From: Solwaraspora sp. WMMA2056
Lineage (GTDB): Bacteria > Actinomycetota > Actinomycetes > Mycobacteriales > Micromonosporaceae
Reading direction: 5' to 3'
Length of the DNA: 64,000 bases
Assembly: GCF_030345095.1 (NCBI RefSeq)
Contig: NZ_CP128360.1
Span: forward strand, 4,464,001 to 4,528,000
How positions within the stretch are numbered: position 1 is the stretch's first letter; every line of letters starts with the position of its first letter. A program made the translations under genes and the position numbers. Shown piece by piece: positions 5,859-18,555 of this stretch. The notes below the pieces were generated by a model. That model ran no database searches. It was not told the origin of the DNA and saw only the letters and a list, made by a program, of their open reading frames with translations.

Positions 5859-6044
5859 TCAGCGGTTGACGGTGATCTCGGCGAGGAACGACCGCCAGGC
5901 AGCCGGGGCGAAGGCGAGGGTGCCGCCGTCGCGGTCCTTGGTGTCCCGTACGTACACCCGACCGGGCAGGTTCTCGGCCACCTCGACACATCCGTTGGTG
6001 TCGCTGCGGCTCGACTTGTGCCATAGTGCACCGTTCATGTCCAT
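5859..6044 (-). CDS. DUF397 domain protein
   Basis: 61-aa protein of the DUF397 family, showing the usual ALWHKSSRSD N-terminus, a central CVEVAEN, the VRDTKDRDG motif and an AAWRSFLAEI end. DUF397 proteins are small actinomycete partners of XRE-DUF5753 regulators. Two in-frame ATGs exist: 6044, used here, and 6038, which overlaps the upstream stop as ATGA. Translational coupling to the regulator is likely. Confidence 0.93.
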   Translation of the reverse strand: MDMNGALWHKSSRSDTNGCVEVAENLPGRVYVRDTKDRDGGTLAFAPAAWRSFLAEITVNR

Positions 6045-6817
6045 TTCTCGGCCATCCTCTTGATCAGGTCTAGGCTCTGCTGGTACGGCAGGGCATGTCC
6101 TCGGGTCGACTCCCACGCGTCCTCCAGCTTGGCCGTGTCATACGGGGCCTCGATGATCCGACCGCGTAGGTAGCCGTCCAGGAACCCAACAGTACGCCCC
6201 TCGACAGTCGCGAGCACCAGGCCGCCATGAAGCCCGGCGTAGAGGCCAGTGCCGAGCGGGATCACATGTACCTGGACATTGGGCAGCTCGCATGCGGACA
6301 CCAGCGCGTCGACCTGTTCCCGCATCACCTCTCGGCTGACAACTTCACGATGGAAGACCAGCTCGTCAACCACCGCGACAAGCCGGATCGGGCTGTCCTT
6401 GGTCAAGATCGACTGTCTGGCAATTCTTGCCTGGACCAGAGCGTCAAGATCGGATGCGGGTTCGTCAAAGATCCGCAGCACCTCCCGGGCATACGCCTCG
6501 GTCTGCAACAGTCCGGGCACGACGAACGGGTGGAAGACGCGAAGTAGGGTCGCTCGCGCCTCGTAATCGACGAATGGCTTCAACCACACGGGAGCGTGTT
6601 CGCCGATGACGAACTCGCGGTAGAACTTCATGAAGGCGGTGCCGAACACCTTGTCGACCATGCCCAGGTAGTTGGGCAGGGCGGGGCGTTCGCCGCGCTC
6701 GATGGAGCCGACGTGCTTCGCGGAGAAGTGGACGCGCTCGCCCCACGACTCCTGGGTGAGACCCATCGACTCGCGTACTCGCCGTAGCTCCGATATCAGA
6801 TACTCGCTGCCGCTCAC
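6035..6817 (-). CDS. XRE-family regulator with DUF5753 domain
   Basis: About 260 aa: an N-terminal helix-turn-helix (LTQESWGERVHFSAKHVGSIERGER) followed by the DUF5753 domain (HPFVVPGLLQTEAYAREVL through VQVHVIPLGTGLYAGLHGG). These proteins pair with DUF397 partners and act in actinomycete developmental or antibiotic regulation, WhiJ-like systems being the studied example. The frame opens further upstream to a TTG at 6901, but the extra residues are encoded by the CCCTC-repeat DNA, so GTG 6817 just before SGSEYL is preferred. The target is inferred to be its own promoter. Confidence 0.9.
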   Translation of the reverse strand: MSGSEYLISELRRVRESMGLTQESWGERVHFSAKHVGSIERGERPALPNYLGMVDKVFGTAFMKFYREFVIGEHAPVWLKPFVDYEARATLLRVFHPFVVPGLLQTEAYAREVLRIFDEPASDLDALVQARIARQSILTKDSPIRLVAVVDELVFHREVVSREVMREQVDALVSACELPNVQVHVIPLGTGLYAGLHGGLVLATVEGRTVGFLDGYLRGRIIEAPYDTAKLEDAWESTRGHALPYQQSLDLIKRMAEKWT

Positions 6818-6821
6818 AAGC

Positions 6822-7049
6822 CCCTCGCATCCCTCGGATTCCCTCGTGCACACGCGGTGGAGACATCGCCGAGAGGCGTCCCCGTTGCGTGATTTCGCCA
6901 ATCATCTTCCTCGACGAGCGCTGAGGCGTCCAGCATGGATTTCGGTCCTGTGGACAACTGCAAGATCAGGTTGAGTAATTGATCTTCGGGCTTCTATCAG
7001 ATGGACTCTTGACGTTGCAAGGCTTTCGCATCCCTCAGTTTCCCTCGTG
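6822..7049. promoter_or_regulatory. Two copies of an iterated CCCTC operator-like element
   Basis: The roughly 350-bp gap between the DUF5753 regulator and the next gene holds two near-identical 22-bp elements, about 6828-6849 and 7028-7049, reading gcatccctcRGWTTccctcgtg and 200 bp apart. Each contains CCCTC units spaced 9-10 bp, so they face the same side of the helix; the first has a third unit just before it. Read on the minus strand they are GAGGG repeats immediately upstream of the regulator's GTG. They are likely autoregulatory sites. I see no gene in this gap. Confidence 0.5.
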
Positions 7050-7171
7050 CTGGTCGAGGTTCGCGTCATGGGACTCCCGGCGTGCACGGGGTCACCGGTC
7101 GGGTTCCGCCAACCGTGACACCGAGTCCAGGGTGGATGTCACGACTCATTGGCTATCCAAGGAGGATCTTG

Positions 7172-7633
7172 GTGGTGCACAGGAACGACGGGATCGGCGG
7201 GACGCCCCGGCTGGCCCGCTACACGTCGATCGGGACGCCACGGCGTACCGATGCGACCCCGAATCGGCCGCCGCTGCCGCGACGGACGCCGGGGGAGACG
7301 GACATCGGCCGCGACCCGCGGTTCCGGCTGACCGCCGCCCGCGCGGTCGACCCCGCTCTGACCGGCGCGGTCGACGCCGCGCTCGACCCCGGCGACACCG
7401 TGGTGGCGCAGGCGGTGCACCGGGCGCGGATCGACATCGCCGAACACCTGCCGTCGGCGCGGCTCGGCGAATGCCGCACCTGTGACGTCGCCGCGCCGTG
7501 CCGGCCGTTCCTGCGGTCGCTGGTCATCCTCGACCGCTGGGATCCGGGTAAGGCCCGGCGGGTGCGGGCGGTGCTGCAGCTTTCCGGGCTGATGCCGGAC
7601 GGCTACCCGCACGGGGAGGACGACGATGTCTGA
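7172..7633 (+). CDS. Hypothetical protein with CxxC motif
   Basis: About 153 aa, not recognised. GTG 7172 is chosen because AAGGAGG lies 7 bases upstream (7159-7165). The N-terminal third is basic and Pro/Arg-rich. The C-terminal half is predicted helical and carries CRTCDVAAPC, a possible metal or redox motif, followed by FLRSLVILDRW. It overlaps the next gene by 8 bp, so the two are co-translated. The short conserved-looking pair may be a lineage-specific module; no function is proposed. Confidence 0.7.
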   Translation: MVHRNDGIGGTPRLARYTSIGTPRRTDATPNRPPLPRRTPGETDIGRDPRFRLTAARAVDPALTGAVDAALDPGDTVVAQAVHRARIDIAEHLPSARLGECRTCDVAAPCRPFLRSLVILDRWDPGKARRVRAVLQLSGLMPDGYPHGEDDDV

Positions 7634-7895
7634 CGAGCCGCTGCGGATCGGCGAGACGCTGCACCTGGGCAAGGCCGACTGGGTGTACGGCGACTGTTCG
7701 ATGCGGGTACGGGTCTCCGACATCCGCTACGGCCACGACAGCGACGAGTCGCCGGTGATCGGCGTCATCGCCACGATCGTCGGCGGTGGACGCGACGGCC
7801 GGATGGTGGCGATCGCGATCTACAAACAGGCGCTGACCCGGCCCGGAGTGCGGGAATCAGCGCGTGCCGTCAACGGGACCGACCCGTACCAGTGA
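7626..7895 (+). CDS. Small hypothetical protein
   Basis: 89 aa, ATG start overlapping the upstream gene by 8 bp. It reads as a compact beta-rich domain: RIGETLHLGKADWVYGDCSM, then RVRVSDIRYGH, then an IGVIATIVGGG strand and the basic end YKQALTRPGVRES. No signal peptide or membrane segment is visible. I do not recognise the family. Its coupling to the CxxC protein suggests that the two act together. Confidence 0.7.
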   Translation: MSDEPLRIGETLHLGKADWVYGDCSMRVRVSDIRYGHDSDESPVIGVIATIVGGGRDGRMVAIAIYKQALTRPGVRESARAVNGTDPYQ

Positions 7896-8104: not shown

Positions 8105-11100
8105 GTGGTGCGGGCATCCGACTATCTCCACGATCGGGAGCGTGAGTGGGCGCCGGCGCTGCGGGCGGTATCGCTGGTCGCCGAGATCGCGGTGCCCGAG
8201 CTCGAAGCCCGCCGAGCGGTCAGTGCGCTGGGAAAACTGTACGGCGCCGGCAGCGAGTATGAGCAGCGTCAATACCTGTACTACCGCTACCCGGCCTGCC
8301 TGCTGGTCGGCCTCAGCGGGATCGGTGCGTCCCGCTACGAGCAGGGCAACTACTGGGGTGCCGTGCGGGACCACACCCGCCACCAGGTCGACGAGACCGC
8401 CTGGGGCGCGGCGTTCCGGGCCAACCTGGACCAGTTCGGCCTGGCCCGATTCCCCGGCCTGCCGCAGATCAACGTCGGTGAAATCCTCATGCACGGCGGG
8501 ATTCCCGCCTACTGCCTGGGGGACCTGCTGAACCTGCTGCTGCAACGGCAGTCCCGCGAGCCTGGCACCACCGTCACGGACTTCTTCGCCTGGGCGTTGA
8601 CACCCGGCCGGGAATCGCGACTGAACACCCTCGACATGCCGGTGCGGCGGCTGCTGCAGCATGGCGGCGAATACGCCGAAGACCTCGTCGACCGCTGCAT
8701 CGACCTGCTGGACCGGTTCCGCGCGCCGGCGTTCACCGCCGACGGGCTCGGCCTGCCGCCGCACCTGATCGACCAGGCCCGCGGCTACGTCGAGGCCGGG
8801 CAGCTCGACTGGGCCGGCACCGCGACCCGCACCGGCACCGCCGCCGGAGGCAGCGGCGGCGCGGCGACACCCCGACCGTACGTGGAGCTGGAGCCGTACG
8901 GCCGGGGCCTGCTGGTGCGGCTGCCGGCGGTGCCCGACGCACCCGGCGGCCGGGTCGAATGGCGGGTCCGGGCCGGCGAAGACGTCCAGACGATCGTCAG
9001 CCGCTCCCGGATCCCCGGCGACGTCGACACCGCGCCACCGGCCGTCGCGACGATCTCCCGACCGGTGCGGCAGGTCACCGTCGAACTCGCCGCCATCGAG
9101 CGGGAGTTCGAACTCGACCTGATCGACCCACGCGAACCGCTGCTGATCTTCACCGACGAAGGCCGGCGGGTGCCGCTGACCGCCAGCCTGCCACCGGAGC
9201 CGGTCTGGATCCTGCACCCCGGTCGTGACGGCACCGGCCAGCCGGTCACCCTGCACATCGACCGGGCCGCCGCCGCGACCAAAGCCGGCCCCGGCGGCCC
9301 GGCAGCCGACGGCGACCTGCCGGTGCCGTACGGCTGGTTCGGCTGGACGCTGCGCCGGGTCGACCTGGGACAGGTCACCGGGCTGCGGCTCGCCGACGGA
9401 CCGACCCGGCGGGTCGGCACCGCCCGGCGGGCCCAGCTGCGCCTCAGCCCGCCGCTGCCCGACGTGGTCAGCGTCGCCGGCACCCCCGTGTACGGTGCCG
9501 CCCCGGCACTGTTCCTGCCGACCGAGGCGGGCGTGGCCACCGAATGGTCGATCCGCGTCCGCCGGCCCGGCAGCGCCGACCTGCTCACCGCCGCCAGTGT
9601 GCGGATCACCGGCGACACCGTCACCGACCCGTGGCGGCAGCTGCCCCGGCCACTCGTCGGCAGCTACGAGATCACCGTCCGAGGGCCGCTCGGCCGGGGC
9701 CTGTCGCGCACCCTCGACCTCGCCGAAGGGCTGACCGTCACCGTCCACCCGGTGTGGCGGGAGCTGCGGCCCGACGGCCTCGCGCCAGCGACCGTCCGGC
9801 TCGGCGCGGCCGCGACGGCGCTGCGGGTCGACCCGCCGCTGACCCGACTCGACCCGACCCAGACCAGCACCGACGCGCAGCTCACCGCCGCCGGACACAC
9901 CACCACGGTACGGGTCACCCCGCCGCACATGTCCGCCCAGTGGATCAGCGCCGGCCGCACCACCCCGTGGTCGCTGCAGCCGCTGCGCCTGGACACCGAA
10001 ACCGTCGGCGACGGCGAACTGCTGGTCCGGCTGCCGGCGGCGGTCGACGCCGACCTCGTCGTCACCAGCGGCGGCCAGCAACGGCAGACGCTCGCCTCCC
10101 GCGCCACGTACGGTCAGCCACTCGCCCGGTTCCCGCTCGCCGCGATCGCCGACACCGTCCGGGTCTGCGGCTCCGCCCAGCTCGCGGTCCGCCTGGGCGG
10201 CCAACAGTTCCCGGTCGCCCGCTGCCTGCCCCGACAACTCGCCGGCACCGTCCACCTCAAAGACGACCAGCTGGCCCTCGACGACGCCAGCCCGGTCAAC
10301 GGACTGACCGCCGGCGTCTACCAGGTGCTGGCCCCGTGGCGGCCACCGCACGTCACCCCGATCGGCGCAGACCTGGCCAGCGAGCCGCTGCCCGCCGACC
10401 TGACCCGGGCCGGGCCGCTCGCGGTGCTGCTGCGCGTCGACGACCCGTGGCTGCCCGAACCCTGGCCGGACTGGCCCGGACAGGACAACAGTTTCACCGT
10501 CGACGGCGACTGGGACCCGCCGCTGCCCGACACCCCCGACACGGCGCTGTCGCGTCACCTGGCCGGGCTGACCGACCTGCCGGACCGCCCCGACATCGCC
10601 CCGCTGATCCTCCCGCTGTACCGCCGCGCCGAGGACCTGCGCCGCCACGGCGTCACCGTCGCCGTCCGCGACACCGCCGCCGTGCTGCGCCGACACCCGG
10701 TCGCCGCCCTGACCGCGTTGACCCGCACCCGGTCACCCGCAGCCGAACTGGTGGCCCCGCTGGTGCACTCCGGACTGGTGGCGCTGCCGCCGTTGGCCTA
10801 CCTCGGCACCGCCGACGAGGCGAGGCTGTGGCAGACCAGCCCACTCGCGGCGCTGCTGGCCACCACGTACCGGCTCGGGGTCACCGCGGCCGGCGACGAC
10901 CTGCACGAACGGGCGGCGACGGCGTGCGGCGACGTGCTCGACAAGCTTCTGGCCGGCGAGCCCGACCCGCACCGGGCGGCCGGCCGGTTCGACCAGGCCG
11001 CGCAAATGCTCGCCCGGCTGCCGGCCGAGCAGCGCGACGAGCTGTGGCGGGCGATGCGCATCGTCCCCGGTGGACTCCTCGATGTCGACGAACGGGTCGC

Positions 11101-11446
11101 CGCCGCCCGGCGACTGTTCGACGTGCGCGACCGGCCCGGCGTGGCCCGGGTCGCCGCCGCCGGCCCCGACCTGCTGCGCACCCTGCGGCCCGCGCTGGCC
11201 GCCGCCGGCGGCCCGGTCGTCGACGCGGCCGTCGGAGCCCGACAACGCGGCCCCGGCTGGCCGGACCTGCCGGCGCTGTCGCTGGCGTTCGCCTTCACCG
11301 CCCGGCTGGTCGCCCGCGACCGGCTGCCGGCGAACCTGCTGACCCGGACCACCCCGCACCACGCGACCCTGGCCCGGCACGCCCCCGACCTGACCACCAT
11401 CGACATCTTCCTCGCCGAACTCACCCTCACCGGAGACGCCGAATGA
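8105..11446 (+). CDS. Large protein of unknown function, first gene of a helicase defence-like operon
   Basis: 1,113 aa, GTG start after a purine-rich CAGGGGGA. Residues 1-240 are helical, with a distinctive LYYRYPACLLVGLSGIGASR segment and GEILMHGGIPAYCLGDLL. From about 250 to 800 the sequence becomes strand-rich and repetitive, suggesting several Ig-like or beta-sandwich modules (for example ILHPGRDGTGQPVTLHIDR). The C-terminal 280 residues are helical again. No nuclease, ATPase or methylase motif is evident. It overlaps the helicase start as ATGA, so expression is coupled. Its size and position resemble the unknown large partner of two-gene Druantia systems (DruH), but I cannot show homology. 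A scaffold or sensor role is inference only. Confidence 0.85.
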   Translation: MVRASDYLHDREREWAPALRAVSLVAEIAVPELEARRAVSALGKLYGAGSEYEQRQYLYYRYPACLLVGLSGIGASRYEQGNYWGAVRDHTRHQVDETAWGAAFRANLDQFGLARFPGLPQINVGEILMHGGIPAYCLGDLLNLLLQRQSREPGTTVTDFFAWALTPGRESRLNTLDMPVRRLLQHGGEYAEDLVDRCIDLLDRFRAPAFTADGLGLPPHLIDQARGYVEAGQLDWAGTATRTGTAAGGSGGAATPRPYVELEPYGRGLLVRLPAVPDAPGGRVEWRVRAGEDVQTIVSRSRIPGDVDTAPPAVATISRPVRQVTVELAAIEREFELDLIDPREPLLIFTDEGRRVPLTASLPPEPVWILHPGRDGTGQPVTLHIDRAAAATKAGPGGPAADGDLPVPYGWFGWTLRRVDLGQVTGLRLADGPTRRVGTARRAQLRLSPPLPDVVSVAGTPVYGAAPALFLPTEAGVATEWSIRVRRPGSADLLTAASVRITGDTVTDPWRQLPRPLVGSYEITVRGPLGRGLSRTLDLAEGLTVTVHPVWRELRPDGLAPATVRLGAAATALRVDPPLTRLDPTQTSTDAQLTAAGHTTTVRVTPPHMSAQWISAGRTTPWSLQPLRLDTETVGDGELLVRLPAAVDADLVVTSGGQQRQTLASRATYGQPLARFPLAAIADTVRVCGSAQLAVRLGGQQFPVARCLPRQLAGTVHLKDDQLALDDASPVNGLTAGVYQVLAPWRPPHVTPIGADLASEPLPADLTRAGPLAVLLRVDDPWLPEPWPDWPGQDNSFTVDGDWDPPLPDTPDTALSRHLAGLTDLPDRPDIAPLILPLYRRAEDLRRHGVTVAVRDTAAVLRRHPVAALTALTRTRSPAAELVAPLVHSGLVALPPLAYLGTADEARLWQTSPLAALLATTYRLGVTAAGDDLHERAATACGDVLDKLLAGEPDPHRAAGRFDQAAQMLARLPAEQRDELWRAMRIVPGGLLDVDERVAAARRLFDVRDRPGVARVAAAGPDLLRTLRPALAAAGGPVVDAAVGARQRGPGWPDLPALSLAFAFTARLVARDRLPANLLTRTTPHHATLARHAPDLTTIDIFLAELTLTGDAE

Positions 11447-14400
11447 TCCTGGATCCCCTGGCCACCAGCGACGACATCGTCGCCACCTATCAGCGGTACC
11501 TACGCAGCCTGGTCGAGCCGAGAGATCCCCGGCTCGCCGCCGCACTGGACACCGCGATCGCCGACGCGATCAGCCGGGAGATCACCAAAGGGCCGCTGCT
11601 GGAAGCCACCCCGCCGTACCGCACCGGACGCACCCCGCGTCAGCTCATCGACGCCGGGGCGCTGCACCCGGGCATCGCCGCGCTCGGCGCCGGCCTGGCC
11701 CTGGACCGGCCGCTGTACCGGCACCAGGAACGGGCGATCGGCAAGGTGCGGGCCGGGCGCAACGTCGTCGTCGCTACCGGCACCGGGTCGGGCAAGACCG
11801 AAAGCTTCCTCCTGCCGATCCTGGACCGGCTGATGGCGCAGCGGGCCGCCGGCACCCTCGGCCCCGGTGTCCGGGCGCTGCTGCTCTACCCGATGAACGC
11901 CCTCGCCAACGACCAGATGAAGCGGCTGCGCACCCTGCTCGCCGGAGCCCCCGACATCACCTTCGGCCGCTACACCGGCGAAACCAGGCACACGCAGCGC
12001 GAGGCCGCCGAGGTCTTCGCCCAACAGCACCCCGGCGAGCAGCGGCTACCCAACGAACTGCTCAGCCGCGAACAGATGCAGGCCACGCCACCGCATCTGC
12101 TGCTGACCAACTACGCCATGCTGGAATACCTGCTGCTGCGGCCACTGGACATGGACCTGTTCGAAGGCGACCACGCCGGCCACTGGCAGTTCATCGTCGT
12201 CGACGAAGCCCACGTCTACGACGGGGCGCGCGGCGCCGAGCTGGCGATGCTGCTGCGTCGGCTCGTCGACCGGGTCGGCCGAGGTCGGTCGGTGCAGTGC
12301 ATCGCCACCAGCGCCACCGTCGGCGGCGACCTGGCGGCGGTCGCCGCCTTCGCCAGCTCCCTGTTCCCGGTTCCGTTCCAGCATGACCCGGCCGACGCCG
12401 CGTCGCAGGACGTCATCACCGCCGAACGGGTCGAGGTGCCGGCCGGGCCGGAATGGGGTCCGCTTCCCGCCGCCGCGTACCGGCAGCTGCGCGAGGCCCC
12501 GTCGCCGGCAGCGGCCCTGCTGGAGCGCGCCCGCCGCGACGGCGTGCCAGCTGTCGTGGACGCCGCCGCTGCGGTGCTGGAGCAGGAGCAGCGGGTACGC
12601 CGGCTCAAGCGGCTGCTCTCCCACGGGCCGATGCCGCTGCGTGAGGTCGCCCGGGCGCTGTTCCCCGACGACGCCGACCAGACGGCCGTCACCGACCTCG
12701 TCGCACTCGCCAACGCCATCCACGACAGCACCGGCACCCCGGTGCTGTCCGCCCGCTACCACCTGTTCGCCCGCGCCACCGAAGGTGCCTTCGCCTGCCT
12801 CGGCGCGAACGGCCCGCACGTGAGCCTCACCCGGCACGAACGCTGCACCAGCTGCGGCGACGCCGCCTTCGAGATCGGCACCTGCCGTCGGTGCGGCACC
12901 GAACACCTGGCCGGCACTGTCGAACGGGTCGGCAGCACCGCCGTCTTCCGGTCCCGCCGCTCCCGCGACGAACAACAGACCTGGCTGGCCCTCGTCGACG
13001 CGGTGACCACCGACGAGGATGAGGAGACCCTGCAGACCAACAGCGTCGCCAAGACCAGCGAAACCGGTGCGCTCTGCGCCCGCTGCGGGGTGTTCCAGGT
13101 CGGACCGCCCGGCAACTGTCCACAGTGCCCCAACAGTCCGATGCGGGCGGTGCGGTTCGTGCGGCAGAACGCCGAAGCACTCACCTCCTGCGTCGGCTGT
13201 GGCGGACGCGGCGACGGACTCATCCGGTTGTTCGCCAGCGGCAACGAAGCCTCCGCCTCGGTGCTCGCCACCGCCCTCTACCAGCGGCTGCCGCAGGCCA
13301 CCGACGCGGCGCAGCAGGCCCTGCCCGGTGGCGGTCGCAAAGTGCTGCTGTTCAGCGACAGCCGCCAGTCGGCGGCCTACTTCGCCCCGTACCTGGAAGA
13401 CTCCTACCAGCGGGTGCAGCGACGCCGCCTGCTGCGCGAAGGCGCGCTCGCCGCCACCGCCCGTGGCGACGCCGAGATCCGGCTCGACGACGTCGTCCAC
13501 GACACGGCCCGCGCCGCCGACAAGTACGGCATCTTCCAACGCCGCGACTCCGCCCAGGCCCGCCGCCGGCAGGTCGCCCTCTGGGCGCAGACCGAGATCG
13601 TCGGCGTCGACGAACGCAACTCCCTCGAAGGGCGCGGCCTGCTCGCCTGGGGCATGTCCCGCGACCCCGCCTGGCGGGCACCCCAACCGCTGACCAGCCT
13701 CGGCCTGACCGAGGTGGAAGTGTGGGCGCTGCTCGACGAACTGCTGCGCTCCGTACGGCTGCAGGGAGCCGTCGCCGCCCCCGACGGGGTCGACCCGCGC
13801 GACGAGGCGTTCGCCCCCCGCGTCGGGCCGATCTACCTGCGCGGCACCGGCTCCGACTCCCGCCGCAAGGTGCTGAGCTGGCTGCCGACGAAAGGCACCA
13901 ACCGGCGGGTCGACTACCTGCGGCGGGTCCTCGCCCGCCTCGGTGTCACCGCCGACCCGCACCAGCTGCTCGACGGCATCTGGCGGCTGCTGACCGCCGG
14001 GCCGATGAGCGAACTGTTGCGATCCAGCCTCGAACCCGGCATCGGGCAGGTCTACCAGCTCGACCACGAACTCGTCACCTGCACGGTCCCCGGCGACGAC
14101 CACCCGGTCTGGCAGTGCGGCACCTGCCGGCGGATCACCCCGTACACCGTCCGGGGGGTCTGCCCCACCATGAAGTGCGTCGGTGAGCTGGCCCGCTGGG
14201 TGCCGCCGCCGGCCGACGTCGACCACGACCACTACCGGTCGGTGTACCGGGATATGAACCCGGTGCCGATGCGGGTGCTCGAACACACCGCCCAGTGGAC
14301 CAGCGAACAGGCCGCGAAGATTCAGCAGGAGTTCGTCCGGGGCGAGGTCAACGCGTTGTCCTGCTCCACCACGTTCGAACTCGGTGTCGACGTCGGTGAA

Positions 14401-16392
14401 CTGCAGGCCGTCATGCTGCGCAACATGCCACCCACCACCGCCAACTACGTGCAGCGGGCCGGGCGGGCTGGCCGGCGCACCGACTCGGCGGCCCTGGTGC
14501 TGACCTACGCGCAGCGCCGGTCACATGACCTGTCCCGGTTCGCCGAACCGGACCGGATGATCGCCGGTGAGGTCCGGGCACCGTACGTGCCGCTGACCAA
14601 CGTCCGGATCGACCGCAGGCACGCCCACTCGGTGGCCCTGGCCGCGTTCTTCCGGCACCACTTCCGCACCTACGGCACCATCTGGCGTACGGCGGGGGAG
14701 TTCCTGCTCGCCGGCGACGACGGCGTCGCGCCGGTGACGTTGGTCGCCGGCTTTCTCGATCCGGTGCCGGCGGAGATCGTCGAATCGCTGCACCGGGTCC
14801 TGCCGGCCGAAGTCCGCGACGAGATCGGCGTCGCCTCCGGCGACTGGGTCACCCACCTGGTCGGCCTGCTGGAGTCGGTCCGCGCCGAACTGCAGAACGA
14901 CGTCGACATCTACGAGGAGAAACGGGCCGAGGCGTTCGCCGCCCGCAAGGACGATAGCGCGGCCCGGTTCGGCCGGGTGATGAAGACCATCACCGGCCGG
15001 GAACTGCTCGGCCTGCTCGCCAACCGCAACGTCCTGCCCAAGTACGGCTTCCCGGTCGACACCGTCGAACTGCGGCTCACCTTCGCCGACGACCAGATGT
15101 CCCGCCAACTGGAGCTGTCCCGGGACCTGTCGTCGGCGATCTACGAGTACGCCCCCGGTGCCGAGGTGGTCGCCGGTGGACAGACCTGGCAGTCGGCCGG
15201 GGTGTACCGGCTGCCCGGCCGGGACCTGGAACGGCGCCACTACGCCGTCTGCGCCGGCTGCGGCCACTACCGGGACTCGATCGAGCGGCTCGACCCGCAG
15301 TGCCCGGCCTGCGGCGCGCCGGCCACCGGCGTCCCCCGGCAGTACGCGGTGCCGGTGTTCGGGTTCGTCGCCGACCGGTCCGGGGGCCGCCGGCCCAGCA
15401 CCGCGCCCCGGCGCACCTGGCACGGCGCCACCCACGTGGTCTCCACCGGTGCCGAGATTCTCGAGGACAAGGTCGACCTGCCGGGCGGCTCCGTGACGGT
15501 CCGGGCCGGCTCCCGTGGCGAACTGATCGCCGTCAGCGACGGTGCCGGCGGAGCCGGTTACCTCATCTGCGACCGGTGCGGATTCGCCCAGTCCAACACC
15601 AGCAAAAAGCAGCGCCAGCACTCCAGCCCGCTCACCGGCCGGGACTGCCCGGGCCGGTTGGAACTGCTGTCGCTGGCCCACAAGTACCAGACCGACGTGC
15701 TCGACCTCAGTGTCGACAGCGCCGCGCTGGGCGGTATCGACGACAACGGTTGGCGGTCGCTCGCGTACGCGGTCGTTGAAGGGGCAGTGCAGGCGCTGGA
15801 GATCTCCCGCGACGACATCGACGCCACGGTGTACCGGACCGAAGCCAACCGCAGCGTGATCATGCTGTACGACACCGTGCCGGGCGGTGCCGGGCACGTG
15901 CAACGGATCGCGGCGCGGGTACGTGACGTCCTCGACGAGGCGCTGCGGCGGGTCCGCGACTGCGAATGCGGGGTGGAAACCAGCTGCTACCGGTGTCTGC
16001 GGGTGTTCCGCAACGACCGCTACCACGAGCACCTGCGTCGCGGTGTCGCCGCCGACGTGCTGGGTCGGCTGCTCGGCCGAGACGATCAGACCACTGTCGG
16101 GGCGCTGCGGGTCACCCTCGCCGAACACACGGCCGCGGTCGGCGCCGACCGCAGGTTCCTGATCGACGACGTACCCGGTGAGGTGTTCGAACCGGTGACA
16201 CCCGGCCAGCTCGACCTCTACGAGGGACGGATCGTCTTCGCCCGACAGGCCGGTGCGGCGGCGGTCGGCCGACTCTGGTTGCGCCGCGACGGCGAGAACG
16301 GCGACGTCGTTGGCGCCGGGGTCGAGCCGCTGGCCGGCGAACCGTTGGACGGCCTCGACGACCTGACCCTCATCGGCGTCGCGCTGCTCTGA
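11443..16392 (+). CDS. DEAD/DEAH-box helicase with C-terminal MZB/DUF1998 zinc domain (DruE/DrmA-B-like)
   Basis: 1,649-aa SF2 helicase. The start is ATG 11443, overlapping the upstream stop; the frame stays open far upstream but only as a shadow. Motif I is ATGTGSGKT (101-109), motif II DEAH (254-257), motif III SAT (290-292), and motif VI QRAGRAGRR (1004-1012), preceded by CSTTFELGVDVGE. Between the helicase lobes lie several Cys clusters (CTSCGD...CRRCG near 470, CARCG...CPQC near 550, CGTC...CVG near 900). The C-terminus has CAGCGH...CPACG and the signature DTVPGGAGH...CECG...SCYRCLR of MZB/DUF1998 domains. Large helicases of this build are cores of Druantia (DruE), DISARM (DrmA/DrmB, split) and related systems. 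It probably translocates on nucleic acid in an anti-phage complex with its two neighbours. Confidence 0.95.
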   Translation: MILDPLATSDDIVATYQRYLRSLVEPRDPRLAAALDTAIADAISREITKGPLLEATPPYRTGRTPRQLIDAGALHPGIAALGAGLALDRPLYRHQERAIGKVRAGRNVVVATGTGSGKTESFLLPILDRLMAQRAAGTLGPGVRALLLYPMNALANDQMKRLRTLLAGAPDITFGRYTGETRHTQREAAEVFAQQHPGEQRLPNELLSREQMQATPPHLLLTNYAMLEYLLLRPLDMDLFEGDHAGHWQFIVVDEAHVYDGARGAELAMLLRRLVDRVGRGRSVQCIATSATVGGDLAAVAAFASSLFPVPFQHDPADAASQDVITAERVEVPAGPEWGPLPAAAYRQLREAPSPAAALLERARRDGVPAVVDAAAAVLEQEQRVRRLKRLLSHGPMPLREVARALFPDDADQTAVTDLVALANAIHDSTGTPVLSARYHLFARATEGAFACLGANGPHVSLTRHERCTSCGDAAFEIGTCRRCGTEHLAGTVERVGSTAVFRSRRSRDEQQTWLALVDAVTTDEDEETLQTNSVAKTSETGALCARCGVFQVGPPGNCPQCPNSPMRAVRFVRQNAEALTSCVGCGGRGDGLIRLFASGNEASASVLATALYQRLPQATDAAQQALPGGGRKVLLFSDSRQSAAYFAPYLEDSYQRVQRRRLLREGALAATARGDAEIRLDDVVHDTARAADKYGIFQRRDSAQARRRQVALWAQTEIVGVDERNSLEGRGLLAWGMSRDPAWRAPQPLTSLGLTEVEVWALLDELLRSVRLQGAVAAPDGVDPRDEAFAPRVGPIYLRGTGSDSRRKVLSWLPTKGTNRRVDYLRRVLARLGVTADPHQLLDGIWRLLTAGPMSELLRSSLEPGIGQVYQLDHELVTCTVPGDDHPVWQCGTCRRITPYTVRGVCPTMKCVGELARWVPPPADVDHDHYRSVYRDMNPVPMRVLEHTAQWTSEQAAKIQQEFVRGEVNALSCSTTFELGVDVGELQAVMLRNMPPTTANYVQRAGRAGRRTDSAALVLTYAQRRSHDLSRFAEPDRMIAGEVRAPYVPLTNVRIDRRHAHSVALAAFFRHHFRTYGTIWRTAGEFLLAGDDGVAPVTLVAGFLDPVPAEIVESLHRVLPAEVRDEIGVASGDWVTHLVGLLESVRAELQNDVDIYEEKRAEAFAARKDDSAARFGRVMKTITGRELLGLLANRNVLPKYGFPVDTVELRLTFADDQMSRQLELSRDLSSAIYEYAPGAEVVAGGQTWQSAGVYRLPGRDLERRHYAVCAGCGHYRDSIERLDPQCPACGAPATGVPRQYAVPVFGFVADRSGGRRPSTAPRRTWHGATHVVSTGAEILEDKVDLPGGSVTVRAGSRGELIAVSDGAGGAGYLICDRCGFAQSNTSKKQRQHSSPLTGRDCPGRLELLSLAHKYQTDVLDLSVDSAALGGIDDNGWRSLAYAVVEGAVQALEISRDDIDATVYRTEANRSVIMLYDTVPGGAGHVQRIAARVRDVLDEALRRVRDCECGVETSCYRCLRVFRNDRYHEHLRRGVAADVLGRLLGRDDQTTVGALRVTLAEHTAAVGADRRFLIDDVPGEVFEPVTPGQLDLYEGRIVFARQAGAAAVGRLWLRRDGENGDVVGAGVEPLAGEPLDGLDDLTLIGVALL

Positions 16393-16470
16393 CCAGGACA
16401 CCCCTGCCGTACGCGTGTCGCCGCATGCTATCACCAGATGTCGCCTAACGTGGTTTTTAGGTGACGACTG

Positions 16471-17646
16471 GTGGCGAAGAAGGTGAATCTCGTGTCAACT
16501 GGGGCATGGTGGACGGCGGAAGACGTCGCCAACGTGGAGAAGGACCTGGCCCGGCATCCCAAATCCGGCCTGTGGAGCTACACCAGTCCGGCGGAGATGG
16601 CCCACTGGGTCTTCGCCGATCCGGCGTTGCCCGCCGCCGGGGATCTGGCCGCACCGGGCGTGGATCCACTCGACGCTGATCTTGACGAGCCGGCGCGCGC
16701 CTCATGGGCACTCGCCGGTTGGTACATCCGGATGACCGTGCCGAAGCCGGCCGAGACCGACGGCAAGCTGTGGTTCCTGAACCAGCGGCGGGTGCGGGGC
16801 CGGTCGCTGCTGCGGGTGACCCTCGGCCGGCTGGAGACACTGTGGCTGTACGAGGACGGCGACGGGATCAACTTCCACTTGGACAAGGTCGCCGTCGATG
16901 CGGCTTTCGAGGCGGGCGTCATCGACGAGGACGCCTGGGTCACCCGGGTCGCCGAGCGTGAGGACGACCCGTACGACACCCTGCGGGGCGAGAAGATTGG
17001 CTGTGTGTGCGACACCGTCGACGACGCGCTGTGGGCCCTGCGGCAGCCACCGGTCCTCGCTGCGGCGCGGCTGCTCAACGTCAAGTGTCTGGCCGTCGGC
17101 GGCTTCTCGTTCCAGCGACTGCACCGGCCGGAGCGGCTGGCCCGAGCCTGGTCCGCCGCACAGGCGCACTTCGACTCCCCGCCACTGCGGTCAGAGCCGG
17201 AGCCGGCGTTCGACCGTCCGTACCGGTCTCCGATCGTGGACCCGGCGGCGCTGACCGGCACCCGGGCCTTCGACAAGCACGCGTACGCGGCCGGGTGCGA
17301 CGAGCACGACCGGCTCAGCCGCTGGCTGATCGACACTCTGGCCGCCACCGGTACGTCGGCGGGCACCGGGCTGGCCGGAGTGCCGGTGGACCTGGCCTGG
17401 CAGGACGCTGACGGCCGGCAGTACATCGCCGAGGTCAAGAGCCTCGTCGGTGCTGGTCCGGAGGATCAGTTGCGGCTCGGTCTCGGGCAGGTGCTCGAGT
17501 ACCGGCACCGGCTGGCCCTGCTCGGCCGGGTGGTCACCCCGATCCTGCTGACCTCGGCCCCGGTCGACGAGGTGTGGCGCGACATCTGCCGGGACAACGG
17601 CGTGACCCTGCTCGTCGACGGTGATCCATTGCCTTCCGGTTGTTGA
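16471..17646 (+). CDS. Protein with C-terminal PD-(D/E)XK-like nuclease domain, third gene of the helicase operon
   Basis: Up to 391 aa. GTG 16471 is the longest start; GTG 16492 (VSTGAWWTAEDV) has AGAAGG upstream and is equally plausible. Residues 15-230 form an uncharacterised region in which DUF3883-associated proteins often vary. The C-terminal 110 residues look like a restriction-endonuclease fold: DKHAYAAGCDEHDRLSRWL helix, then VDLAWQ, then YIAEVKSL supplying D...E-x-K, then a helix with QLRLGLGQVLEYRH, as in DUF3883/PD-(D/E)XK families. The 78-bp gap after the helicase suggests the same transcript. Predicted DNA-cleaving effector; the fold is inferred from motif order only. Confidence 0.85.
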   Translation: MAKKVNLVSTGAWWTAEDVANVEKDLARHPKSGLWSYTSPAEMAHWVFADPALPAAGDLAAPGVDPLDADLDEPARASWALAGWYIRMTVPKPAETDGKLWFLNQRRVRGRSLLRVTLGRLETLWLYEDGDGINFHLDKVAVDAAFEAGVIDEDAWVTRVAEREDDPYDTLRGEKIGCVCDTVDDALWALRQPPVLAAARLLNVKCLAVGGFSFQRLHRPERLARAWSAAQAHFDSPPLRSEPEPAFDRPYRSPIVDPAALTGTRAFDKHAYAAGCDEHDRLSRWLIDTLAATGTSAGTGLAGVPVDLAWQDADGRQYIAEVKSLVGAGPEDQLRLGLGQVLEYRHRLALLGRVVTPILLTSAPVDEVWRDICRDNGVTLLVDGDPLPSGC

Positions 17647-17730
17647 TCCACTGCGCTTCACCAACTCGACACGCCGGTGGTCAATTTGCTGAGGCGCATT
17701 GGATCACACGTCGGGAAAGGGAACGGCGAC

Positions 17731-18555
17731 CTACTCCCCGAGGAAGTCGTCCAACTTGAAGGATTGGCTGCTCGCCAATCTGGCGACCAGGTCTTCTGGC
17801 TCCGGCGACGTGGTGTGCCTCTCGTGGTGGATGCGGCGCAGGTCGTCCGCCACGATCCAGTCGCTGGTGTAGAGACAGACCGAAGGGATCACCGCTCCAG
17901 CGCCGCCGATCCTGAGGATCCTTGCCTGGCCGTAGTGGGCGTAGTCGAGTCGCCAGGACGGATCGTCGTCGAGTAGCCTGACCGCAACCTTCGGCGGGTC
18001 ATGGGTGAATGCGATCAGGCCCCTGTCGGTGGCTGCCCAGGAACGTTCCGTGTAGCAGTCGATGTGATACTGGGCATCGAGTACGACCTCGGTGGACGAC
18101 CAGAACAGCCGTTCGTCATCGCTGATCAGTCCCACCTGACGTCCGTGCGTCGTCTCCTCCCGCGACCTGCTCGCCCGCACCGCCTCGTTGATCTGATCGG
18201 CGAGAGCGATTCCGGCAGGGTTCCATCCGCCAAAGCTGATGACGATCCGCTTGCTTCGCTGCCCGTCGTAGTCGCTGACCCGAAACGCGATCTCGCCACG
18301 ATCTCTATTGAGAACCTGGCACTGACCAATCTTCTCGATCGGGATGACCGTCGGCATCATGGACTCCACGGTTGTCCGATGCAACCTGCTGAACGAGAAC
18401 AGCCGTAGCTTCTCGCTGGTCAGGCAGGCCACGACCGTCGACCCGCCGTCACCGGGTAGATCCCACAAGCCGGCGGCTATGCCATAGAAGGTCTCCTCGT
18501 TCGCGTCGATGCTGAGGTCGGCGGCTCGGTCGAAGTCTGGGTCACCAACACGCAT
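17731..18555 (-). CDS. Hypothetical protein beside the helicase operon
   Basis: 274 aa, unrecognised. The sequence is alternating strands with regular polar turns and no signal peptide or membrane helix. LRLFSFSRLHRTTVESMMPT followed by VIPIEKIGQCQVLNRD, and later RSWAATDRGLIAFTHDP, resemble bacterial PH-like (lipid-binding or scaffold) beta barrels, possibly two copies, but this is a weak impression. It is convergent with the nuclease gene, with 84 bases between the stops. Its base composition seems a little less GC-extreme than its neighbours, which would fit acquisition with the defence-like operon. Confidence 0.75.
   Translation of the reverse strand: MRVGDPDFDRAADLSIDANEETFYGIAAGLWDLPGDGGSTVVACLTSEKLRLFSFSRLHRTTVESMMPTVIPIEKIGQCQVLNRDRGEIAFRVSDYDGQRSKRIVISFGGWNPAGIALADQINEAVRASRSREETTHGRQVGLISDDERLFWSSTEVVLDAQYHIDCYTERSWAATDRGLIAFTHDPPKVAVRLLDDDPSWRLDYAHYGQARILRIGGAGAVIPSVCLYTSDWIVADDLRRIHHERHTTSPEPEDLVARLASSQSFKLDDFLGE

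What the first reader, a model, noticed from the sequence alone, without database searches (positions are those of the whole stretch)
8105..17646. Three-gene helicase-nuclease operon, candidate undescribed anti-phage system
Seen: a 1,113-aa protein of unknown family overlaps (ATGA) a 1,649-aa DEAH helicase with central Cys clusters and a C-terminal MZB/DUF1998 domain, followed by a protein ending in a D...E-x-K nuclease-like motif. Known: helicases with DUF1998 are cores of Druantia (DruE) and DISARM (DrmA with DrmB). The set does not match those gene lists as I know them: no DruA-D, no methylase, no PLD protein. Inference: a Druantia-III-like or new system in which the large first protein acts as sensor or scaffold and the third gene as nuclease.
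Basis: partly seen in the sequence, partly recalled or inferred. Interest (0 to 1): 0.82.

Follow-up and report, generated by a model that had tools for sequence, protein, structure and literature searches.

The report
Actinobacterial Druantia III phage-defence pair
Two overlapping genes here form a phage-defence pair of an already described kind (Druantia type III, the branch whose helicase usually carries no nuclease domain), and the nuclease-like third gene looks like a separate neighbour whose relatives often sit beside a different defence system.

Summary
In detail: a 1,113-aa gene (8105-11446) overlaps by ATGA a 1,649-aa DEAH/MZB helicase (11443-16392); 78 bp on lies a 391-aa protein with a D..ExK..QxxxY nuclease signature. 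The helicase is DruE (PADLOC DruE1 624 bits, DruE3 608). The first protein's family lies just upstream of this helicase in 72 of 80 named loci. No PADLOC DruH model matched 9 of 9 members tested, but its model (pLDDT 88) shows the published DruH layout, and profile comparison with E. coli DruH gives weak collinear matches above shuffled controls. Two papers describe this kind: "Druantia Type III-B", mostly nuclease-less (PMC12458937), and M. smegmatis DruH-DruE, shown to block phages (PMC13316683). The third gene is probably not part of it: no relative in 83 other druE loci, no druHE in 14 of 14 extended loci carrying its relatives, one being the same site in a same-genus genome. Elsewhere its relatives accompany PglX.

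The parts
8105..11446 (+). druH-like gene, 1,113 aa (proposed type III-B DruH); predicted helical 4-230, mostly beta (Ig-like) about 259-800, helical 811-1112
   Evidence: GTG start with AGGGGGA just upstream
11443..11446 (+). ATGA stop/start overlap of druH and druE (translational coupling inferred)
11443..16392 (+). druE, 1,649 aa, YprA-like SF2 helicase with no recognised C-terminal nuclease domain
   Evidence: PADLOC DruE1 624 bits, DruE3 608 bits; DEAD, Helicase_C, MZB and no nuclease domain in Pfam; motifs
15760..15999 (+). MZB / DUF1998 zinc-binding domain of DruE
16471..17646 (+). PD-(D/E)xK-like nuclease gene, 391 aa; neighbour, judged NOT part of the Druantia pair

Best explanation
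8105-16392 is a two-gene Druantia type III system of the mostly nuclease-less III-B branch, the kind tested in Mycolicibacterium smegmatis. DruH (first gene) is the sensor: a string of Ig-like domains between two helical regions that would recognise a phage structural protein. DruE (second gene) is an SF2 helicase that loads on 3' single-stranded DNA of incoming or replicating phage genomes. Once triggered, DruH and DruE act together on phage DNA, blocking circularisation and replication, with late death of the infected cell. Since DruE has no recognised nuclease domain here, any cutting would come from DruH or from host nucleases. Shown here: gene content, order, overlap, intact helicase motifs, predicted layout of DruH, conserved pairing. 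Taken from papers on relatives: antiphage activity, DruH-DruE contact and trigger by a tail protein (M. smegmatis); 3'-tail loading and DruH nicking (E. coli). Inferred: that this copy is active and works the same way.
For: DruE identity (best PDB sequence match the 2,108-aa helicase 9tu7, E 8e-91). Upstream gene of the P0001 family in 72 of 80 named druE loci by iterative HMM; the first round, with P0001 alone, already took 51 of 84 sequences, up to four of them seeds. Mycobacterial loci with DruH-like stop-to-stop frames of 1,137-1,144 aa (L078, L080, L082), beside 1,132 + 1,667 aa published for M. smegmatis. At the best of four shifts tried (minus one), 4 of 9 residues mutated or modelled in that paper and taken as DruE (K119, A292, R823, C1516; V857's protein was my guess) have the same letter in P0002. 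DruE tree: 39 P0002-like rows apart from four III-A rows, SH-aLRT 95. No long nuclease tail: in the 64 of 68 loci whose frame end could be read, at most 158 aa follow the match end. Predicted DruH layout like that published for E. coli DruH. Collinear profile hits P0001-family 28-139/460-494/744-780 against E. coli DruH 34-144/480-518/788-822; best score 32.1 against 23.9 at most in 20 shuffles and 16.3 reversed.
Against: No PADLOC DruH model matched P0001 or eight other family members. hhalign's own probability with E. coli DruH is 2.1% (all members) and 0.8% (actinobacteria only); global mode gives 0.1%; the actinobacteria-only profile scored 29.1 against a best shuffle of 27.8 and its third segment is off the diagonal. 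The III-A profile had only seven sequences. E. coli DruH was not among the 50 Foldseek hits shown (whether 9tud is in that library is unknown). MSMEG_1253/1254 could not be fetched, and 5 of the 9 paper residues do not match at the best shift. The tree is a quick one with flagged long branches.
Confidence: 0.83

Rival explanations
1. A three-gene system: DruE lacks its own nuclease, so the adjacent PD-(D/E)xK protein (16471-17646) acts as the nuclease in trans.
For: Intact nuclease signature; same strand, 78 bp downstream; all 3 same-genus genomes found with druHE (of 7 searched) also carry the third gene right after it; DruE has no recognised nuclease tail.
Against: No relative (best E 0.99) in 83 other druE loci within the flanks held. 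14 of 14 extended 19-kb loci chosen for the third gene, out of 30 genomes with it and without a druHE neighbour, lack druHE. In same-genus genome G114 the third gene sits at the same site without druHE. Relatives accompany PglX in six loci of another genus.
Confidence: 0.1
2. The helicase is Druantia-like, but the first protein is unrelated to DruH, so this is a separate DruE-based system that only resembles type III in layout.
For: PADLOC DruH models and direct HMM searches find nothing; hhalign probability about 2% or less; PADLOC scores DruE1 slightly above DruE3.
Against: Same order, size and predicted layout as DruH; collinear profile matches above controls; an actinobacterial pair of this layout was named and tested as DruH-DruE (PMC13316683).
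Confidence: 0.13
3. A housekeeping DNA-repair helicase operon of the MrfA/YprA or SftH type, not defence.
For: MZB also occurs in repair helicases (6znp, named YprA, E 1e-18).
Against: PADLOC DruE scores (385-624 bits) are far above the best NCBIfam helicase model (138 bits, cut-off 874); patchy distribution: P0001 in 6 of 150 family genomes, 3 of the 7 same-genus ones, 5 of 200 order genomes.
Confidence: 0.03

Closest known systems
Druantia Type III-B / 'Type III-like' branch (PMC12458937; sections on new classes and on structures, figure legends, and passages read)
   Same: YprA-like DruE helicase in a branch distinct from III-A, most often without a nuclease domain
   Different: Representative GIH50614.1 could not be compared directly; 'DruH' occurs 0 times in the main text
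M. smegmatis DruH-DruE, MSMEG_1253/1254 (PMC13316683; abstract, sections 2.1-2.3, 2.7, Discussion and passages read)
   Same: Two overlapping genes, 1,132 + 1,667 aa against 1,113 + 1,649 aa; DEAD, Helicase_C and DUF1998 domains, no canonical nuclease domain; said to be widely present in Actinobacteria
   Different: 17-bp overlap against 4 bp; sequence not held here, so identity unmeasured; activity shown there only
E. coli Druantia type III(-A): DruH (9tud) + DruE with two PLD domains (PMC13192584; abstract, three Results sections and the phylogeny method read)
   Same: Gene order, DruH size and layout, helicase core
   Different: III-A DruE runs about 390 residues past the part shared with the DruE1 model, against about 110 here; DruH sequence similarity is barely detectable
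ARMADA / DISARM / BREX type 2
   Same: MZB helicase (ARMADA, DISARM, from PMC12458937); PglX/PglW beside relatives of the third gene (BREX type 2)
   Different: No match to a PglX or PglW query anywhere in the window; PADLOC DrmA 57 bits against 624 for DruE

Membership tests
Druantia (any type) | DruE helicase: SF2 motifs plus MZB/DUF1998 | tested here: met
Druantia type III | two genes, large first protein immediately upstream of DruE | tested here: met
   the family is upstream of DruE in 72 of 80 loci
Druantia type III | first protein recognised by PADLOC DruH models | tested here: not met
   no hit for P0001 at E<=1, L046/L047 at E<=10, six further members at E<=1; these models match E. 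coli DruH at up to 2,511 bits
Druantia type III | first protein homologous to DruH | tested here: inconclusive
   collinear hhalign segments above 20 shuffles but probability 2.1%; same layout
Druantia type III-A | two C-terminal PLD domains on DruE | tested here: not met
   DruE ends 130 aa after MZB, no PLD match in Pfam
Druantia type III-B | DruE in the distinct branch, mostly without nuclease | tested here: inconclusive
   separate branch and no long tail; published representative GIH50614.1 not available for placement
M. smegmatis DruH-DruE | sequence similarity to MSMEG_1253/1254 | not testable with these tools
   genome not recognised among those searched; mycobacterial relatives found
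Druantia types I/II | their accessory genes (DruA and others, recalled) beside DruE | tested here: not met
   ten flanking proteins by Pfam, four by PADLOC: none; not every window ORF was scanned
DISARM | DrmA + DrmB, methylase, PLD (recalled list) | tested here: not met
   DrmA 57 bits against DruE 624; none of these among the neighbours scanned
[quoted passage not shown]
   no match to a PglX/PglW query in window; helicase scores as DruE
Druantia | protects against phage | not testable with these tools
   needs a bench test

The most novel reading that the evidence does not exclude
In this genus the nuclease-less DruE has recruited the adjacent stand-alone PD-(D/E)xK protein, originally the last gene of a PglW-PglX module, so that druH-druE plus this gene work as a lineage-specific three-gene system. 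More broadly, III-B DruE and Pgl/BREX-2 modules swap partners, as suggested by two Streptosporangiaceae loci where a DruE of the same clade sits beside PglW-PglX with no DruH-like gene found.
Probability: 0.12. Interest if true: 0.55.

Novelty: new member of a known kind. Interest (0 to 1): 0.33.

Why it matters
PADLOC-DB 2.0.0 does not recognise this DruH branch (0 of 9 members tested), so a census that needs PADLOC DruH hits, such as the one in PMC13192584 (predominantly Proteobacteria), would probably miss these pairs in Actinomycetota, Chloroflexota, Bacillota and archaea. The alignment and model here are a starting point for a DruH-B profile. A DruE without its own nuclease also gives a clean way to ask whether DruH is the nuclease of Druantia III.

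Tried and rejected
Rejected: three-gene operon as the best reading; DISARM/ARMADA/DpdJ reading (far lower scores); DruH as a PADLOC-recognised family.

Led nowhere: finding M. smegmatis DruHE and a residue fingerprint from the paper (best 5 of 11 positions, 4 of 11, 3 of 7; no locus fitted); tblastn of P0001 in plasmids (no match); a recurrent gene downstream of druE (largest family in 5 loci). Structure searches with the DruH-like model gave no specific relative: the 50 PDB hits shown are mostly multi-domain Ig/FN3-like or alpha-2-macroglobulin/complement chains, with some unrelated ones (ciliary, TRAPPII, S-layer), and the 50 viral hits shown are mostly uncharacterised, some labelled FN3, Ig-like, tail or baseplate; TM to the whole query at most 0.12 in both lists. 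This supports a string of beta domains and nothing finer.

Full report
What is there. The window lies in a 7.01-Mb single-contig genome. At 8105-11446 a 1,113-aa gene overlaps by ATGA a 1,649-aa helicase gene (11443-16392); 78 bp later comes a 391-aa gene (16471-17646). The helicase has Walker A, DEAH and SAT motifs, ten CxxC motifs and an MZB domain. PADLOC scores it as DruE1 (624 bits) and DruE3 (608 bits), against 83 for DpdJ and 57 for DrmA. The first and third proteins match no PADLOC or NCBIfam model at E<=1 and no Pfam family above its cut-off.

Is the first gene tied to the helicase? In 150 genomes of the same family, 6 (the window's included) have a relative of the first protein; in the order sample 5 of 200. 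In the five other family genomes, the copy that keeps the C-terminal end is followed at once by the helicase in 5 of 5. A scan of named genomes with a DruE alignment kept its best 80 loci; the longest frame ending near the helicase start belongs to the P0001 family in 72 of 80 by iterative HMM search. Of the other eight, L105, L141 and L142 have little sequence upstream and L109 next to none; L130 gave a weak match (E 3e-6) with filters off; L144 none; L072 and L121 carry a different upstream gene. The loci were chosen by similarity to this DruE, so 72 of 80 is not an unbiased rate. In the genus of G449 the family occurs in 7 of 148 genomes with P0001 and in 23 of 396 with a mycobacterial query, one of these a weak 123-aa fragment. 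That this genus is Mycobacterium is inferred from a C-terminus identical to that of a named Mycobacterium locus.

What is the first protein? No PADLOC DruH model matches it or eight other members (L046, L047, L115, L113, L101, L111, L106, L080), though these models match E. coli DruH at up to 2,511 bits. HMM iteration never reached E. coli DruH. Profile-profile comparison with seven III-A DruH proteins gave three collinear local segments (offsets 6, 20 and 44 residues); the best scored 32.1 against 23.9 at most in 20 block shuffles and 16.3 reversed. Against this, hhalign's own probability is 2.1%, the global mode gives 0.1%, and the actinobacteria-only profile beat its best shuffle only narrowly (29.1 against 27.8), with its third segment off the diagonal. 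AlphaFold2 with 50 aligned sequences gave pLDDT 88.2, pTM 0.64: helices 4-230, mostly strands 259-800, helices 811-1112. E. coli DruH is described with helical N- and C-terminal regions and Ig-like domains at 257-464, 465-631 and 632-748 (PMC13192584). I judge it a remote DruH; homology is likely, not proven.

Literature. PMC12458937 names Druantia Type III-A and III-B and says helicases of the distinct Type III-like branch occasionally carry PLD or Vsr nuclease domains but most often none. PMC13316683 reports that M. smegmatis DruH (1,132 aa) and DruE (1,667 aa), from overlapping genes, protect against mycobacteriophages, interact, block circularisation and replication of phage DNA and are activated by a minor tail protein; it says neither has a canonical nuclease domain and that the pair is widely present in Actinobacteria. 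PMC13192584 reports for E. coli that DruE prefers 3'-tailed DNA and that dimeric DruH nicks DNA. The window's pair fits the first two. In a quick tree of 46 DruE-like proteins, 39 P0002-like rows separate from four III-A rows at SH-aLRT 95; 35 of the 39 have a P0001-family gene upstream (not L072, L121, L130, L144). Long branches are flagged and the root is arbitrary. Of the 68 of 80 loci examined, the helicase frame could be read to its end in 64, and at most 158 aa follow the match.

The third gene. It is a PD-(D/E)xK-type protein by motif and, weakly, by fold. Relatives occur in 33 of 300 family genomes. It neighbours druHE in the window and two same-genus genomes, which are all the same-genus genomes found with druHE (3 of 7). 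Of the other 30 genomes, 14 loci were extended to 19 kb (L050-L063): none has druH or druE. None of 83 other druE loci has a relative within its held flanks (best E 0.99). In same-genus genome G114 the window's left flank (to 7935) and the third gene (from 16507) lie 102 bp apart with no druHE; whether druHE was never there or was lost cannot be told. In six loci of another genus of the family (unnamed, presumably Micromonospora) a PglX-like methylase is on the same strand upstream: overlapping in five, about 3 kb away in one (L055); Pfam was run on two of the six (DUF7008 + Eco57I), the rest are blastp cluster members. PglW lies further upstream in the one examined (L202). In two same-genus genomes PglX lies upstream of druHE at this locus, and in the one checked PglW too. 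A broken DUF7008 piece lies beside the same flank in G105; the window genome has no DUF7008 match. The simplest history is that druHE entered between a Pgl-type locus and its nuclease-like gene, and that the window genome lost the Pgl genes; this is inference.

Verdict. Observation confirmed; interpretation partly right. This is a new actinobacterial member of a described Druantia III branch, with a separable neighbour. Interest is modest: PADLOC's DruH models miss the branch, the helicase lacks a nuclease domain, and the side finding of DruE beside PglW-PglX deserves a survey of its own.

Noticed in passing
L072 (6924-21754) and L121: Two Streptosporangiaceae loci (2 of 85 searched) carry a DruE of the same clade directly before PglW and PglX, with no DruH-like gene found but a 682-aa upstream gene (weak PADLOC PDC-M61B match, E 3e-5); L071 carries a relative of that gene about 2.5 kb downstream of druHE. 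A BREX survey (PMC12839542, passages seen) has 0 occurrences of 'Druantia'.
   Followed up: partly
L051-L053, L055-L057; L202: Relatives of the third gene lie downstream of PglX in six loci, with PglW upstream in L202: a possible PglW-PglX-nuclease set; PglZ/PglY were not specifically searched for.
   Followed up: partly
G032: L048 and L049: The DruH-like gene is split near residue 500 into pieces about 400 kb apart in a single-contig genome, with further frame breaks; druE lies beside the C-terminal piece.
   Followed up: no
   Followed up: no
L101:4915-8967: The DruH-like frame of Ktedonosporobacter carries a C-terminal stretch (1092-1331) matching PADLOC MzaA (E 8e-56): possible fusion.
   Followed up: no
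window 17647-18503; L044:3700-6880: Variable spot: the window has a 274-aa gene with no Pfam or PADLOC match, a same-genus genome has GmrSD-like, AAA/DUF3696 and unknown genes instead.
   Followed up: partly
window 5860-7890: Left flank belongs to a multi-copy family: 58 DNA matches in the own genome; its identity was not tested.
   Followed up: no
L046:12429-14996: In G053 the DruHE pair is followed by frames with HNH_2 and Mrr_cat nuclease domains, not similar to the window's third gene by tblastn.
   Followed up: no
window 16000-16392: 130 aa of DruE lie after MZB; among the 80 named loci only L067 and L089 (Micromonospora) align to this C-terminus end to end, and it has no Pfam match.
   Followed up: no
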